Assembly: GCA_003514455.1 (NCBI GenBank)
Contig: DOQH01000047.1
Location: 1 to 13,862, forward strand
Direction of reading: 5' to 3'
Source: Candidatus Magasanikiibacteriota bacterium
GTDB lineage: Bacteria; Patescibacteriota; Patescibacteriia; Magasanikbacterales; UBA10003
DNA: 13,862 bases
Below the pieces are notes generated by a model, which was given only the letters and a program-made list of their open reading frames with translations, was not told where the DNA came from and did no database searches. A program made the translations under genes and the position numbers. This document shows, piece by piece, positions 79 to 6,769 of the stretch (the first letter of the stretch is position 1; the number at the start of each line of letters is the position of its first letter).

Positions 79-87
79 CAAATCTAA

Positions 88-118
88 AAAAACGCCTCCG
101 ATAATCGAAGGCGTTTTT
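88..118. terminator. Bidirectional intrinsic terminator between the partial gene and glnA
   Basis: AAAAACGCCT (88-97) pairs with AGGCGTTTTT (109-118) over 10 bp. CGA/TCG pairs above one mismatch and the loop is TAA. The stem carries A-runs on one side and T-runs on the other, so it has a U-tail in either direction. It sits between two convergent genes and can serve both, 11 bases before the end of glnA. Confidence 0.9.
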
Positions 119-128
119 GAATCAATTT

Positions 129-1496
129 TTAATACATCTCCAAATATCTCTCTTTTTCCCACTCGGTGACGGCAATCCGAAATTCATCCCACTCTTGCAT
201 CTTAATATCATAATATTTTTTAAATACATCTTCGCCCAGCGCGCTTTTTACTGTCTCATCTTTAGCCAAAGCATGCAAAGCGCCGTACAAATCCGGCGGC
301 AAAGTTTCAATGCCGCGGCTGACTTTTTCCATTTCAGTCAATTCATAGACATTTTCCTCCATTGGCGCAGGGCAAACACTCTTTTTTTCAATGCCGTCCA
401 AACCGGCGGCGAGCATGCCGGCAAAAACCAAATATGGATTGGACGAAGGGTCTGGTGAGCGCAACTCACAGCGCGTGGCCTTAGGTTTTTGCGGATTGAT
501 GCGCGGCACCCGTATCAAAGCCGAACGATTGGTGCGTCCCCAGCTCAAATACACCGGCGCCTCATACCCGGCCACCAGACGCTTGTACGAATTTACCAAA
601 GGATTAAGAATCGCCGAAAGCGCTTTCACATGATTTAATTGTCCGGCGATAAAATGCCGCGCCAAAACTGATAATCCGTACTCATCAACCGGGTCAAAAA
701 ACAAATTCTGGTCGTCCTGAAACAAACTTTGGTGCACATGCATGCCCGAGCCATTGATGCCGAAAAATGGTTTGGGCATAAAAGTGGCGTGCAATCCGTA
801 ATGCGCGGCAATATTTTTCAACGCGTATTTTAGGGTAACCACGCTATCAGCCGCGTTCAGGGCATCAGTATATTTAAAATCAATTTCCTGCTGGCCACTC
901 GCCACTTCATGATGCAAGGCCTCAACATCAATATTTAATTCCTGAAGCGCGCGCGTCATTTCTTTTCTTACTTCACCGGCTTTATCCATCACTTGATCAA
1001 AATAGCCGGCCTGATCATGCGGCTCTTTCGCAATATGGCCATTAAAATCCCGTTTCAAAAGAAAAAATTCCATTTCCGGTCCGACATAATAGGTATAGCC
1101 CATTTGTTTCGCGCGGGCAATCTGTTTTTTCAAAATATATCGCGGGTCGCTGGCATACGGCTCGCCGGACGGAGTAAAAACATCGCAAATAATCCGCGCC
1201 GTTATCGAATGTTTGATGGAATCGTCTTTAAATAAACCATTAGTCCACGGCACAATCGCGAAAGTGTTCAAATCCAGTTTCAAATACATATCGCTTTCAA
1301 AAATCCGCGCGAACCCTTCAATTGACGACCCGTCAAACCAAATATTGTACTCAATGGCTTCGGGCAGTTTGGAAACCGGAATAGTCACGGCTTTCAACTG
1401 GCCAAGTAAATCCGTGAACTGCAAATCAATAAATTTGACATTATGTTTTTGGCAGAGCGCCAATACTTCCTCCTGGCCTAAAATCTGATTTGGCAT
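129..1496 (-). CDS. glnA: Glutamine synthetase, type I (GSI-alpha-like)
   Basis: Makes glutamine from glutamate, ammonia and ATP in the cytoplasm. The 455 residues match the usual GSI length. Visible family motifs are FDGSSIEGF with the following Arg (54-64), GPEMEFF (139-145, metal ligands), HHEVASGQQEIDF (195-207), NGSGMHVH (248-255), NSYKRL..GYEAP (302-314) and ELRSPDP..NPYL (344-355). The C-terminal part resembles Bacillus GSI-alpha and lacks the adenylylation-type NLYDLP motif, so control by adenylylation is unlikely. In GSI-alpha enzymes feedback inhibition involves an Arg in SSIEGF-R and the Glu of GYEAP, and both are present. The ATG at 1496 begins a normal N-terminus, but there is no Shine-Dalgarno sequence. 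The gene lies 50 bases behind tRNA-Asn and, by position, downstream of the Asn-codon attenuator, with a weak possible promoter of its own at 1517-1544. Confidence 0.96.
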   Translation of the reverse strand: MPNQILGQEEVLALCQKHNVKFIDLQFTDLLGQLKAVTIPVSKLPEAIEYNIWFDGSSIEGFARIFESDMYLKLDLNTFAIVPWTNGLFKDDSIKHSITARIICDVFTPSGEPYASDPRYILKKQIARAKQMGYTYYVGPEMEFFLLKRDFNGHIAKEPHDQAGYFDQVMDKAGEVRKEMTRALQELNIDVEALHHEVASGQQEIDFKYTDALNAADSVVTLKYALKNIAAHYGLHATFMPKPFFGINGSGMHVHQSLFQDDQNLFFDPVDEYGLSVLARHFIAGQLNHVKALSAILNPLVNSYKRLVAGYEAPVYLSWGRTNRSALIRVPRINPQKPKATRCELRSPDPSSNPYLVFAGMLAAGLDGIEKKSVCPAPMEENVYELTEMEKVSRGIETLPPDLYGALHALAKDETVKSALGEDVFKKYYDIKMQEWDEFRIAVTEWEKERYLEMY

Positions 1497-1544: not shown

Positions 1545-1546
1545 AT

Positions 1547-1618
1547 CTCTCGGGGAAGGAATCGAACCTTCACTATCCTCGTTAACAGCGAGGCGTTTTA
1601 CCATTAAACTACCCGAGA
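1547..1618 (-). tRNA. trnN-GUU: tRNA-Asn (anticodon GTT)
   Basis: A complete cloverleaf can be drawn. The acceptor is TCTCGGG/CCCGAGA, the D-stem GTTT/AAAC, the anticodon stem CCTCG/CGAGG with loop CTGTTAA (anticodon GTT at 1586-1584), and the T-stem GAAGG/CCTTC with TTCGATT. The discriminator base is G, as in bacterial tRNA-Asn, and no CCA is encoded. GTT reads both AAC and AAT, so one gene of this kind can serve every Asn codon. No promoter is visible between this gene and the terminator at 1651-1682, so it should be the first product of the attenuated transcript and be released by RNase P and 3' processing. Confidence 0.96.
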
Positions 1619-1620
1619 AA

Positions 1621-1650: not shown

Positions 1651-1682
1651 AAAATTAAAACACCCTCCGAGCAGTCGGAGGG
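1651..1682 (-). terminator. Attenuator terminator (segments 3:4) before tRNA-Asn and glnA
   Basis: On the minus strand CCCTCCGA (1682-1675) pairs perfectly with TCGGAGGG (1670-1663) over a CTGC loop. It is followed at once by TGTTTTAATTTT (1662-1651). The GC-rich stem and U-rich tract are those of an intrinsic terminator. It stands 32 bases before tRNA-Asn and about 95 bases after the predicted start of transcription, so it would stop transcription before any structural gene. Its 5' arm is also the target of the competing antiterminator. Confidence 0.85.
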
Positions 1683-1726
1683 GTCTGATGCTACAATTTT
1701 CAGCGCAATCAGAAAGCCCTCCGACT
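1673..1726 (-). promoter_or_regulatory. Antiterminator (segments 2:3) of the Asn attenuator
   Basis: AGTCGGAGGG (1726-1717) pairs with CCCTCCGACT (1682-1673) over 10 perfect base pairs. Beyond a small internal loop, TCTGAT (1713-1708) pairs with ATCAGA (1689-1684) for 6 more. This helix uses the 5' arm of the terminator, so the two cannot coexist. Segment 2 can alternatively pair with segment 1 upstream: CTCCG (1736-1732) with CGGAG (1723-1719), which frees the terminator. Segment 1 begins at the last base of the fourth consecutive Asn codon, and the leader stop codon lies just past segment 2. Confidence 0.82.
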
Positions 1727-1777
1727 CAAAGCGGAGTTATTATTATTGCTATTCAAGTTATATACAGCTATTTTCAT
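1709..1777 (-). CDS. Asn-rich leader peptide of the tRNA-Asn/glnA attenuator
   Basis: A 22-codon ORF runs from ATG (1777-1775) to TGA (1711-1709). It encodes MKIAVYN at the start and SALSRRAF at the end, with Asn at positions 7, 9, 11, 12, 13 and 14. The codons are AAC, AAT, AAT, AAT, AAT and AAC, all read by the tRNA encoded just downstream. The ATG lies six bases after the -10 hexamer, where transcription should begin, so the message is probably leaderless. A ribosome waiting at codons 11-14 would cover segment 1 and leave segment 2 free for the antiterminator. One that reaches the stop would cover segment 2 and let the terminator form. The peptide is probably a control device without a function of its own. 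Its short length is the main reason for caution. Confidence 0.8.
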   Translation of the reverse strand: MKIAVYNLNSNNNNSALSRRAF

Positions 1778-1783
1778 AAAGAT

Positions 1784-1812
1784 ACTATACAACACGCGGC
1801 CAATCTGGTCAA
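1784..1812 (-). promoter_or_regulatory. Promoter of the leader, tRNA-Asn and glnA transcript
   Basis: TTGACC (1812-1807) and TATAGT (1789-1784) are separated by exactly 17 bases. Each hexamer differs from the sigma-70-type consensus at one position. The -35 hexamer contains the TGA stop codon of trpS (1811-1809). The predicted start is at or next to 1777, the A of the leader-peptide ATG. Confidence 0.8.
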
Positions 1813-5708: not shown

Positions 5709-5721
5709 AAAATTTAATTTT

Positions 5722-5793
5722 TGCCTCCAAGAGGAGTCGAACCTCTATTACAAGATCCGGAATCTTGCGTCCTATCCATTGAACGATGGAGGC
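5722..5793 (-). tRNA. trnR-CCG: tRNA-Arg (anticodon CCG)
   Basis: A complete cloverleaf: acceptor GCCTCCA/TGGAGGC, D-stem GTTC/GGAC, anticodon stem CAAGA/TCTTG with loop TTCCGGA (anticodon CCG at 5760-5758), and T-stem AGAGG/CCTCT with TTCGACT. The discriminator is A and no CCA is encoded. It reads only CGG. Its 5' end is one base after the stop codon of the femAB-type gene, and the permease begins 14 bases after its 3' end. It must be cut out of a messenger unless a promoter hides in the upstream coding sequence. A weak candidate there (TTGCCG, 15 bases, TATAAA near 5834-5860) has poor spacing. Confidence 0.95.
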
Positions 5794-5794
5794 A

Positions 5795-6769
5795 TTAAAT
5801 CAATTTTCGTATTTTTTTTATTTGCTGAAATAATTTATACATTTTCGGCTGGAACGGCAATTCGTAAGCGCCCGCAAAACTAAAAATTTCCCCGCCAAAC
5901 CCGCGCTTGAAGCGAGTAATCCCAGCCCAACTCGTTCTAAAATCAAAATCTTTTTCATCATCGGGATTAACACCGCCAAAATCATAATACTGATAACCAT
6001 TTTGTTTGGCAAATTGAATCGCGCGCCAATGCATAAAATATGGTGCCATTAAATCGCGATGCTCGTTTGCCGACGCGCCATGAACATAAGTAAAAGTGTC
6101 TCCAAAACCAATAAAAATACCTCCAGCCAGCATTTTGTTTTGATAATTCGCTACCAAAATCTGGCAACTGACAATTTGTAACATTAATTGATAATATTTT
6201 TTGGTGTGCAATTTAATTTTATCACGACGAGCGGTTTCTTTCATCAAACGCCAAAAAACATCAAACCCAATTTTACTATCACTGAATTCCAATTCTTTTT
6301 TTTCAGCCAATCGTATATTGTATCTGGTTTTCTGATGCATTTCCGCGAGCAGTTGCTCTTCGGATTTGCTTAAATCTAACAATAAAGTGTTGGTTGGTTG
6401 GATTGAAGGAACACGAACAATGAATCCTTCGCTTCGCTCAGGATGGCAGGATAACGGCTCAAACCGAAAAAAAACATGCCCATAATTAATAACGCCTTTT
6501 TTAATAAATTCCGCCATTTCCGCCAAGTGTAATTCCCCTACTGGCCCACGCGGGCAATACAAATATCCCATTCCCAAACCCAAATGATGTTCAATAATTT
6601 GCGCGGCGCCAATTTGTTCCGCCTCATCAAATACGCCCGCGCGCCATACGCGTCGACCAAACTCCTTTTGAAATTCTCCCCATTCCCATGATTGCAAAAA
6701 CTGGGCACGCGATTGCCCAGCCACAAATTTATCCCATTGCTCTTTATCATCAACCAGTCGGCATTCCAT
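5795..6769 (-). CDS. FemA/FemB-type aminoacyltransferase (peptidoglycan cross-bridge family)
   Basis: A 324-residue member of the FemABX/GNAT-fold family. Characterised members transfer amino acids from aminoacyl-tRNA to the peptide of lipid II, and this family usually works at the inner face of the membrane. Typical motifs are FLQSWEWGEF (24-33), KTRYNIRLAEKK (147-158), YYDFGGVNP (261-269) and RFKRGFGGE (286-294). There is no signal peptide. Which amino acid is added is unknown. ATG at 6769 follows the ruvA stop after one base, so translation is probably coupled. There is no Shine-Dalgarno sequence. Residues 108-116 (CHPERSEGF) come from a palindromic repeat inserted in frame between conserved segments. 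The gene's stop is one base from tRNA-Arg. Confidence 0.85.
   Translation of the reverse strand: MECRLVDDKEQWDKFVAGQSRAQFLQSWEWGEFQKEFGRRVWRAGVFDEAEQIGAAQIIEHHLGLGMGYLYCPRGPVGELHLAEMAEFIKKGVINYGHVFFRFEPLSCHPERSEGFIVRVPSIQPTNTLLLDLSKSEEQLLAEMHQKTRYNIRLAEKKELEFSDSKIGFDVFWRLMKETARRDKIKLHTKKYYQLMLQIVSCQILVANYQNKMLAGGIFIGFGDTFTYVHGASANEHRDLMAPYFMHWRAIQFAKQNGYQYYDFGGVNPDDEKDFDFRTSWAGITRFKRGFGGEIFSFAGAYELPFQPKMYKLFQQIKKIRKLI
6424..6444. repeat. Copy of a widespread palindromic repeat inside the FemAB-type gene
   Basis: The 21-base core reads ATCCTGAGCGAAGCGAAGGA plus T on the coding strand. It is an imperfect palindrome: ATCCT/AGGAT plus inner GC pairs around a tandem GCGAA. I recognise it as the dispersed element whose chance translation HPERSEG appears in many bacterial protein predictions. 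Here it is in frame and leaves the ORF open. It is the only copy in the window. Confidence 0.7.

What the first reader, a model, noticed from the sequence alone, without database searches (positions are those of the whole stretch)
1651..1812. Asn-codon transcription attenuator ahead of tRNA-Asn and glutamine synthetase
On the minus strand, a TTGACC-N17-TATAGT promoter is followed by a 22-codon ORF with six Asn codons, four of them consecutive. Then come three competing RNA pairings: 1:2 (CTCCG/CGGAG), 2:3 (10 bp plus 6 bp) and 3:4 (8 bp plus TGTTTTAATTTT). Segment 1 starts at the last base of the Asn run and the leader stop lies just past segment 2. A stalled ribosome should therefore give the antiterminator and a finished ribosome the terminator. 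The pairings and codons are seen directly; the mechanism follows the trp/his leader model; the regulatory role is inference. I know of no described Asn leader controlling tRNA-Asn and glnA, nor of such an attenuator in Patescibacteria.
Basis: partly seen in the sequence, partly recalled or inferred. Interest (0 to 1): 0.95.

Follow-up and report, generated by a model that had tools for sequence, protein, structure and literature searches.

The report
Self-sensing switch for asparagine tRNA
Just ahead of an asparagine transfer-RNA gene these tiny-genome bacteria carry a short reading frame packed with asparagine codons and a set of rival RNA hairpins, together predicted to let a ribosome that runs short of asparagine-tRNA switch that tRNA gene on, a kind of control for which I found no report at any tRNA gene.

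Summary
The 22-codon leader frame is minus strand 1777-1709, the terminator 1682-1663, tRNA-Asn(GUU) 1619-1546. Of 94 tRNA-Asn genes of the same D-stem kind ("U11") read in relatives, 86 carry a short Asn-rich frame upstream (85 genomes, 26 families of one class); of 50 of the other kind ("C11"), 1 does, weakly. Peptides, arms (74 distinct among 83) and neighbouring genes change. The Asn run, the near-leaderless start, the terminator (85 of 86) and the competing antiterminator (82 of 83 by co-transcriptional folding) stay. asnS follows the tRNA in 9 loci of four families, glnA in 5 of three. In the one-contig genome G014 it is the only tRNA-Asn found. Best reading: a ribosome-mediated attenuator whose conserved target is tRNA-Asn itself, with glnA an occasional passenger. 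Anatomy and recurrence are shown, folding is predicted, sensing and readthrough are inferred; there are no RNA data. The mechanism class is known (trp/his type). A tRNA gene as target was not described in any paper listed by ten full-text searches.

The parts
1807..1812 (-). -35 box TTGACC
   Evidence: sequence; promoter score 10 of 12
1784..1789 (-). -10 box TATAGT, 6 nt before the ATG
   Evidence: sequence
1709..1777 (-). leader ORF MKIAVYNLNSNNNNSALSRRAF*, six Asn codons, probably leaderless
   Evidence: congener L003 has MKRTVYNLNNNNNNSALSRRAF*
1736..1747 (-). run of four Asn codons AAT AAT AAT AAC (predicted stall site)
   Evidence: sequence
1732..1736 (-). segment 1 CTCCG, pairs with segment 2
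1717..1726 (-). segment 2 AGTCGGAGGG, 5' strand of the antiterminator
1684..1713 (-). inner 6-bp stem and loop of the antiterminator (1713-1708 with 1689-1684)
1675..1682 (-). segment 3 CCCTCCGA, 5' arm of the terminator; with 1674-1673 also the 3' strand of the antiterminator
1663..1670 (-). segment 4 TCGGAGGG, 3' arm of the terminator
1651..1660 (-). terminator T tail TTTTAATTTT
   Evidence: sequence
1546..1619 (-). tRNA-Asn(GTT) of the U11 kind, conserved target of the leader
129..1496 (-). glnA, type I glutamine synthetase, 49 nt after the tRNA, presumed co-transcribed
   Evidence: also follows the tRNA in L003, L025, L027, L147

Best explanation
This is most likely a ribosome-mediated transcription attenuator that senses how fast ribosomes read asparagine codons and would set the output of the tRNA-Asn gene behind it. 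Seen in the sequence: a promoter-like site places the start codon of a short Asn-rich frame at or near the expected RNA 5' end, followed by three mutually exclusive pairings and then the tRNA. Inferred steps: when Asn-tRNA is plentiful the ribosome runs to the stop codon and covers segment 2, so segments 3 and 4 form the terminator and little tRNA is made. When Asn-tRNA is short the ribosome stalls in the Asn run and covers segment 1, so segment 2 captures segment 3 as it emerges, the terminator cannot form, and RNA polymerase reads on into tRNA-Asn and, here, glnA. The loop would close on itself, because the product raises the supply of the molecule being sensed.
For: Linkage: Asn-rich leader at 86 of 94 U11-kind tRNA-Asn loci against 1 of 50 C11-kind, of which 34 are in the same class and 16 in others; with a stricter rule 58 of 87 tRNA-Asn loci of both kinds against 1 of 83 loci of other tRNAs. 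Spread: 85 genomes, 26 families. Coding: 507 of 1406 codons after the start are Asn, AAT 370 and AAC 137; AGC to AAC between window and congener lengthens the run. Terminator hairpin in 85 of 86, median -11.9 kcal/mol; -8 or better in 80 of 86 against 29 of 430 shuffled stretches. Switch: with a stalled ribosome and RNA made only to the terminator 5' arm, that arm is predicted paired upstream (>0.5) in 82 of 83 leaders, with a finished ribosome in 5 of 83, where the terminator averages 0.94; shuffled spacers average 0.48 against 0.83; spacers swapped between leaders 0.58, real above own swapped mean in 82 of 83. Promoter score >=10 of 12 in 58 of 84 against 1.3% of shuffles, Shine-Dalgarno-like in 1 of 84. 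Neighbours: asnS in 9 of 86, glnA in 5, aspS in 1.
Against: No RNA, ribosome-profiling or starvation data. Eight U11 loci lack the leader by my rule: three have a gene end or promoter-like site abutting the tRNA (L009, L016, L021), one has the Asn tract out of frame (L155), three have none recognised (L195, L197, L275), one is a contig edge (L235). Folding is not uniform: if the whole RNA reaches equilibrium in the stalled state the terminator still wins (>0.5) in 23 of 83 leaders, so there the antiterminator must act kinetically; with no ribosome the terminator wins in 47 of 83 and not in the window. Only 50 of 83 leaders individually beat 95% of their shuffles and 41 of 83 beat 95% of the swaps. 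Segment 1:2 is the weakest part: 77 of 83 fold to -3 kcal/mol or better, but only 57 of 83 are below the mean of their shuffles. My hairpin rule is loose: 207 of 430 shuffled stretches also give some hairpin, with median -4.3. No double compensatory change between window and congener. Transcription coming from trpS could add tRNA independently.
Confidence: 0.86

Rival explanations
1. The hairpin is an ordinary terminator of the upstream gene, and the Asn-rich frame is an AT-rich accident between it and the tRNA.
For: In the window trpS ends just upstream on the same strand, and a terminator there would be normal.
Against: Upstream genes differ from locus to locus and in several (for example L004, L007, L014) the longest upstream ORF runs the other way, with nothing to terminate. 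An in-frame Asn run precedes the hairpin in 86 of 94 U11 loci and in 1 of 50 C11 loci. Mixed AAT and AAC speak against a simple DNA repeat.
Confidence: 0.04
2. It is a T-box-like element in which uncharged tRNA-Asn binds the leader RNA directly, with no translation.
For: T-boxes control aminoacyl-tRNA ligase genes, asnS among them in some species (passages of PMC2494555).
Against: No T-box match at the gathering score in the window or in 20 leader loci. The recurrent feature is a frame with several Asn codons that opens at a -10 box, not a single specifier codon.
Confidence: 0.03
3. The switch is real, but its physiological purpose is glutamine or ammonium supply through glnA, with tRNA-Asn incidental.
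For: glnA lies 49 nt behind the tRNA in the window and behind it in three families; a leader sensing Asn-tRNA could report amide-nitrogen supply (inference).
Against: glnA follows in only 5 of 86 leader loci and asnS in 9 of 86. Caveat: the loci were found through the tRNA, so leaders at glnA without the tRNA would have been missed.
Confidence: 0.06

Closest known systems
trp/his/phe-type ribosome-mediated transcription attenuators (theory in PMC1183508, passages read)
   Same: Short leader ORF with a run of codons for the sensed amino acid, then 1:2, 2:3 and 3:4 pairings with a terminator as the last.
   Different: Target is a tRNA gene rather than biosynthetic enzymes; probably leaderless start; asparagine; a lineage for which none of the papers listed in my ten searches describes such a leader.
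Histidine leader peptides before hisS paralogs in bacilli (PMC2965389, passages read)
   Same: A leader peptide controls the charging machinery (a tRNA synthetase); here asnS follows the tRNA in 9 loci.
   Different: There the target is a synthetase mRNA; here the first and constant target is the tRNA.
Polycysteine leaderless short ORFs of mycobacteria (Canestrari et al. 2020; seen only as cited in PMC9031893)
   Same: Leaderless short ORF with a run of one amino acid's codons, responding to its supply.
   Different: That review says they regulate translation of downstream genes; a tRNA is not translated, so here the output has to be transcription or RNA processing.
T-box riboswitches controlling asnS or aspS operons (PMC2494555, passages read)
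   Same: Control of tRNA-charging genes, including some asnS and aspS genes.
   Different: Sense tRNA directly by RNA pairing (recalled); no T-box match here at the gathering score.

Membership tests
Ribosome-mediated transcription attenuator (trp/his type) | Short translated leader ORF with several codons for one amino acid | tested here: met
   ORF with 3-9 Asn codons at 86 of 94 U11 loci. That it is translated is inferred.
Ribosome-mediated transcription attenuator (trp/his type) | Intrinsic terminator (3:4) between the leader ORF and the first gene | tested here: met
   85 of 86 loci, -8 kcal/mol or better in 80 of 86 against 29 of 430 shuffles; window -14.1 on its own
Ribosome-mediated transcription attenuator (trp/his type) | Mutually exclusive antiterminator (2:3) favoured when the ribosome stalls at the sensed codons | tested here: met
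   Predicted during transcription in 82 of 83 (stalled) against 5 of 83 (finished); arm-swap control. At full equilibrium 23 of 83 would still terminate when stalled. Folding predictions only.
Ribosome-mediated transcription attenuator (trp/his type) | Protector pairing 1:2 | tested here: inconclusive
   Clear in the window; MFE -3 kcal/mol or better in 77 of 83, but below the shuffled mean in only 57 of 83
Ribosome-mediated transcription attenuator (trp/his type) | Controlled genes concern the sensed amino acid | tested here: met
   tRNA-Asn by the way the set was made; independently asnS at 9 of 86, glnA at 5, aspS at 1
Ribosome-mediated transcription attenuator (trp/his type) | Readthrough rises when the charged tRNA is limiting | not testable with these tools
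   needs transcription or starvation data
T-box riboswitch | T-box covariance model match | tested here: not met
   Rfam gathering search: only tRNA matched in the window and in 20 leader loci
Leaderless translational-coupling uORF (mycobacterial type) | Downstream target is a translated ORF coupled to the leader | tested here: not met
   First downstream feature is a tRNA gene in every counted locus, since tRNA-Asn defined the set
Leaderless translational-coupling uORF (mycobacterial type) | Start codon at or near the transcript 5' end | tested here: inconclusive
   Best -10 box ends 6-9 nt before the start codon in 61 of 84 (only 4-11 nt was scanned) and Shine-Dalgarno-like in 1 of 84; transcript ends not mapped

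The most novel reading that the evidence does not exclude
A tRNA thermostat: across many families of one class of tiny-genome bacteria a tRNA gene is autoregulated by the decoding of its own codons. Ribosome speed over AAY codons in a leaderless leader measures the tRNA-Asn supply directly and sets transcription of tRNA-Asn. In many genomes this is the only tRNA-Asn found, so all Asn decoding would hang on the loop; in others it is an inducible second isoacceptor beside a constitutive one.
Probability: 0.55. Interest if true: 0.92.

Novelty: new variant of a known kind. Interest (0 to 1): 0.87.

Why it matters
Amino-acid leaders are known in front of biosynthetic and synthetase genes. A leader in front of the tRNA itself would make a tRNA pool self-correcting through the translation that uses it. 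It gives uncultured minimal-genome bacteria a widespread and testable regulatory circuit. It raises concrete questions: why asparagine only, and why only the U11 kind of tRNA-Asn. It also offers a compact, portable reporter of Asn-tRNA supply.

Tried and rejected
Dispersed repeat: rejected, one match of the leader DNA in the own genome. T-box or another catalogued RNA: no match at the gathering threshold. Leaders at other tRNA genes: 31 tRNA genes of the own genome (read from loci of 30 of its 35 family matches) and 30 of G014. Flagged and set aside: a Lys frame and a Leu frame (G014) that start with TTG; a Leu frame (G014, anticodon gag) with an ATG start and six Leu codons but no run of three, not folded; an Arg frame (own genome, anticodon tcg) with seven Arg in a row, which has an ATG start at 37 codons and TTG starts at 32 or fewer, and which by eye lies out of frame over the end of an upstream open frame (sequence). 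Asn leader before the own asnS: only TTG frames, read as the end of the upstream gene. Viral contigs: one pattern scan, 0 matches. Naming the lineage: in 50 named genomes (41 with names of Patescibacteria groups or plain 'bacterium', 9 of other phyla) the U11 pattern matched 2: a MAG titled only 'bacterium' that has the leader (L314) and Gullanella endobia without one. So the class could not be named. The automatic choice of start codon was wrong in a few loci (for example L003 taken at an internal GTG), which blurs the -10 distances. Rows dropped: the 79 named trpS loci from the tRNA counts; duplicates by upstream sequence; L276 (masked bases) and L278 (contig edge, leader present), which ARAGORN did not call; BLAST hits that ARAGORN called another tRNA or none; two loci with the hairpin more than 70 nt from the stop, and L152, whose hairpin loop exceeded my limit. 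About twenty weak places and most beyond the 30 loci were not fetched.

Full report
What is there. On the minus strand between trpS (2789-1809) and glnA (1496-129) lie a promoter-like site (TTGACC 1812-1807, TATAGT 1789-1784), a 22-codon frame with six Asn codons (1777-1709), rival hairpin arms (1736-1663), a T tail and tRNA-Asn(GTT) (1619-1546). The coordinates of the finding hold. I add the exact ORF ends and the fact that the ATG sits 6 nt after the -10 box, which predicts a leaderless transcript.

Chance. The antiterminator half (1731-1675) and the whole (1731-1663) fold better than all 200 of their shuffles; 1 of 200 shuffles matched the terminator part alone. The leader DNA gives one match in the own genome.

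Relatives. In the only same-genus genome sampled the leader reads MKRTVYNLNNNNNNSALSRRAF: a serine inside the Asn tract has become Asn. The hairpins hold with one G-C to G-U change in 3:4 and two pairs lost at the end of 2:3. Beyond the genus BLAST aligned little more than the tRNA, yet the same layout returns: -10 box, ATG within a few bases, short frame with an Asn run, stop, terminator 15-52 nt later (83 of 85), tRNA-Asn. I collected tRNA-Asn loci by BLAST of the tRNA and by D-stem patterns and read their upstream DNA.

Two kinds of tRNA-Asn. The loci split by the D-stem: GTT..AAC ("U11") or GCTC..GAGC ("C11"); the names are mine, the numbering is the standard one, recalled. An Asn-rich leader stands before 86 of 94 U11 loci and 1 of 50 C11 loci (34 in the class, 16 in other classes), the one being a weak GTG frame in another class. 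With a stricter rule the figures are 58 of 87 tRNA-Asn loci of both kinds and 1 of 83 loci of other tRNAs. The 86 leaders come from 85 genomes of 26 families, all in the window's class. The U11 pattern occurs in 81 of 380 genomes drawn from the class and in 13 of 379 drawn from the phylum. Those 13 are among the 34 same-class genomes of that draw; 0 of the 345 genomes of other classes match. The own genome has one tRNA-Asn of each kind; the C11 copy has no leader.

Is it the only tRNA-Asn? Of 56 U11-bearing genomes tested with the C11 pattern, 28 also match it. The other 28 were tested with a general anticodon-loop pattern: 19 show a single hit, 2 show two U11 hits, 7 show a further, non-U11 hit. 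So in 21 of 56 only U11 genes were found. Against a strong claim: in the same of 13 U11-less genomes showed no hit at all though each must have a tRNA-Asn, so some genes escape, perhaps for introns, and the reversed control pattern matched in 5 of 41 genomes. In G014, one contig at 99% completeness, ARAGORN finds one tRNA-Asn among 30 tRNA genes, and it is the leadered one; that list lacks Cys, Gly, Phe and Pro.

The codons. The 86 leaders hold 507 Asn codons, AAT 370 and AAC 137, 36% of the codons after the start. Mixed codons argue for selection on the amino acid or its tRNA rather than for a DNA repeat. In similar pairs, positions holding Asn in at least one member show 136 identical, 29 synonymous and 43 replacement cases, against 85, 18 and 131 at other codons. 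The pairs are not independent and the Asn positions were part of the selection, so this is descriptive.

The switch. A terminator-like hairpin with a T run was found in 85 of 86. The rule alone is loose (207 of 430 shuffled stretches pass), but -8 kcal/mol or better is reached by 80 of 86 real and 29 of 430 shuffled stretches. I modelled two ribosome positions with ViennaRNA at 25 C for 83 leaders. Stalled means RNA free from the end of the last Asn codon; finished means ribosome at the stop codon, RNA free from 12 nt after the first base of the stop. With RNA made only as far as the terminator 5' arm, that arm is paired upstream with mean probability 0.83 when stalled and 0.16 when finished; the terminator itself reaches 0.94 when finished. 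Shuffled spacers give 0.48, and 50 of 83 leaders individually beat 95% of their shuffles. Spacers from other leaders give 0.58; 41 of 83 beat 95% of their swaps and 82 of 83 beat the mean. The swap control is the harder one because by eye most arms are C-rich and most segments 2 G-rich. With the whole RNA at equilibrium the terminator still wins in 23 of 83 stalled leaders, and without a ribosome in 47 of 83, though not in the window. So in about a quarter of leaders the antiterminator must win by forming first. Segment 1:2 is less certain. These mixed results moved my confidence from 0.88 to 0.86.

Partners. asnS follows the tRNA in 9 leader loci (G046, G184, G026, G012, G332, G276, G308 and two copies in G036; four families), by BLAST to the own asnS at 49-67% identity. 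glnA follows in 5 (G000, G001, G023, G056, G075; three families) and aspS in one (G353). 63 of the 86 loci had any same-strand ORF of 70 codons or more starting within 250 nt. NCBIfam confirms asnS for L012, aspS for L152 and glnA for the window. Repeated joining of Asn-related genes in separate families supports Asn-tRNA as the sensed signal and shows glnA to be one of several passengers. Why glnA would profit is inference: glutamine is the usual amide donor for making Asn (general knowledge).

Mechanism. The best-supported explanation is trp/his-type attenuation acting on a tRNA gene. Shown: the parts and their recurrence. Predicted: the folding. Inferred: translation of the leader, stalling at Asn codons, termination and readthrough, co-transcription of glnA. 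Because the target is a tRNA, translational coupling cannot be the output.

Literature. Ten full-text searches of the open-access library listed between 4 and 20 papers each, of 4 to 939 that matched. None of the listed titles and abstract openings describes a tRNA gene controlled by a leader peptide, an Asn leader peptide, or such an attenuator in Patescibacteria. Unlisted matches and most subscription papers were not seen. I read passages of PMC2965389, PMC2494555, PMC9031893 and PMC1183508, and only listings of the rest.

Taxonomy. The nearest named trpS relatives are Moranbacteria and other Patescibacteria at about 60% identity, and the genome is 767 kb, so Patescibacteria is likely but not shown.

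Verdict. The mechanism class is known; the target and the lineage appear new.

Noticed in passing
L155 (G062), about 125 nt upstream of the tRNA: Leader hairpins and Asn tract are present, but the tract is out of frame with the ATG, with a run of seven A between them. It could be a sequencing error, decay, or slippage.
   Followed up: no
own genome C17:22956-26226 (L140, L141): An AsnRS and an aspartate--tRNA(Asn)-type ligase (PRK05159, 502 bits against cut-off 353; below the cut-off of TIGR00458) lie near each other, in a genome that also has two kinds of tRNA-Asn.
   Followed up: partly
L171 (G090) 1498-1946: The C11 tRNA-Asn stands about 300 nt upstream of the leadered U11 tRNA-Asn, on the same strand.
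   Followed up: no
L009, L016, L021: Relatives with a U11 tRNA-Asn but no leader; a promoter-like site (L009, L016) or the end of trpS (L021) abuts the tRNA, apparently losses of the leader.
   Followed up: partly
L159, L161, L162, L168, L169, L274: Several related genomes carry a similar long ORF, which by eye resembles an ABC transporter (not tested), directly after the leadered tRNA-Asn.
   Followed up: no
window 5721-6769: tRNA-Arg(CCG) follows directly after a FemAB-family gene (PF02388), a family that uses aminoacyl-tRNA in cell-wall bridges (recalled).
   Followed up: no
window 86-118: A near-perfect hairpin flanked by A and T runs just after glnA, a likely bidirectional terminator.
   Followed up: no
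G014, whole genome: Only 30 tRNA genes found, none for Cys, Gly, Phe or Pro; perhaps intron-bearing genes missed by the model.
   Followed up: no
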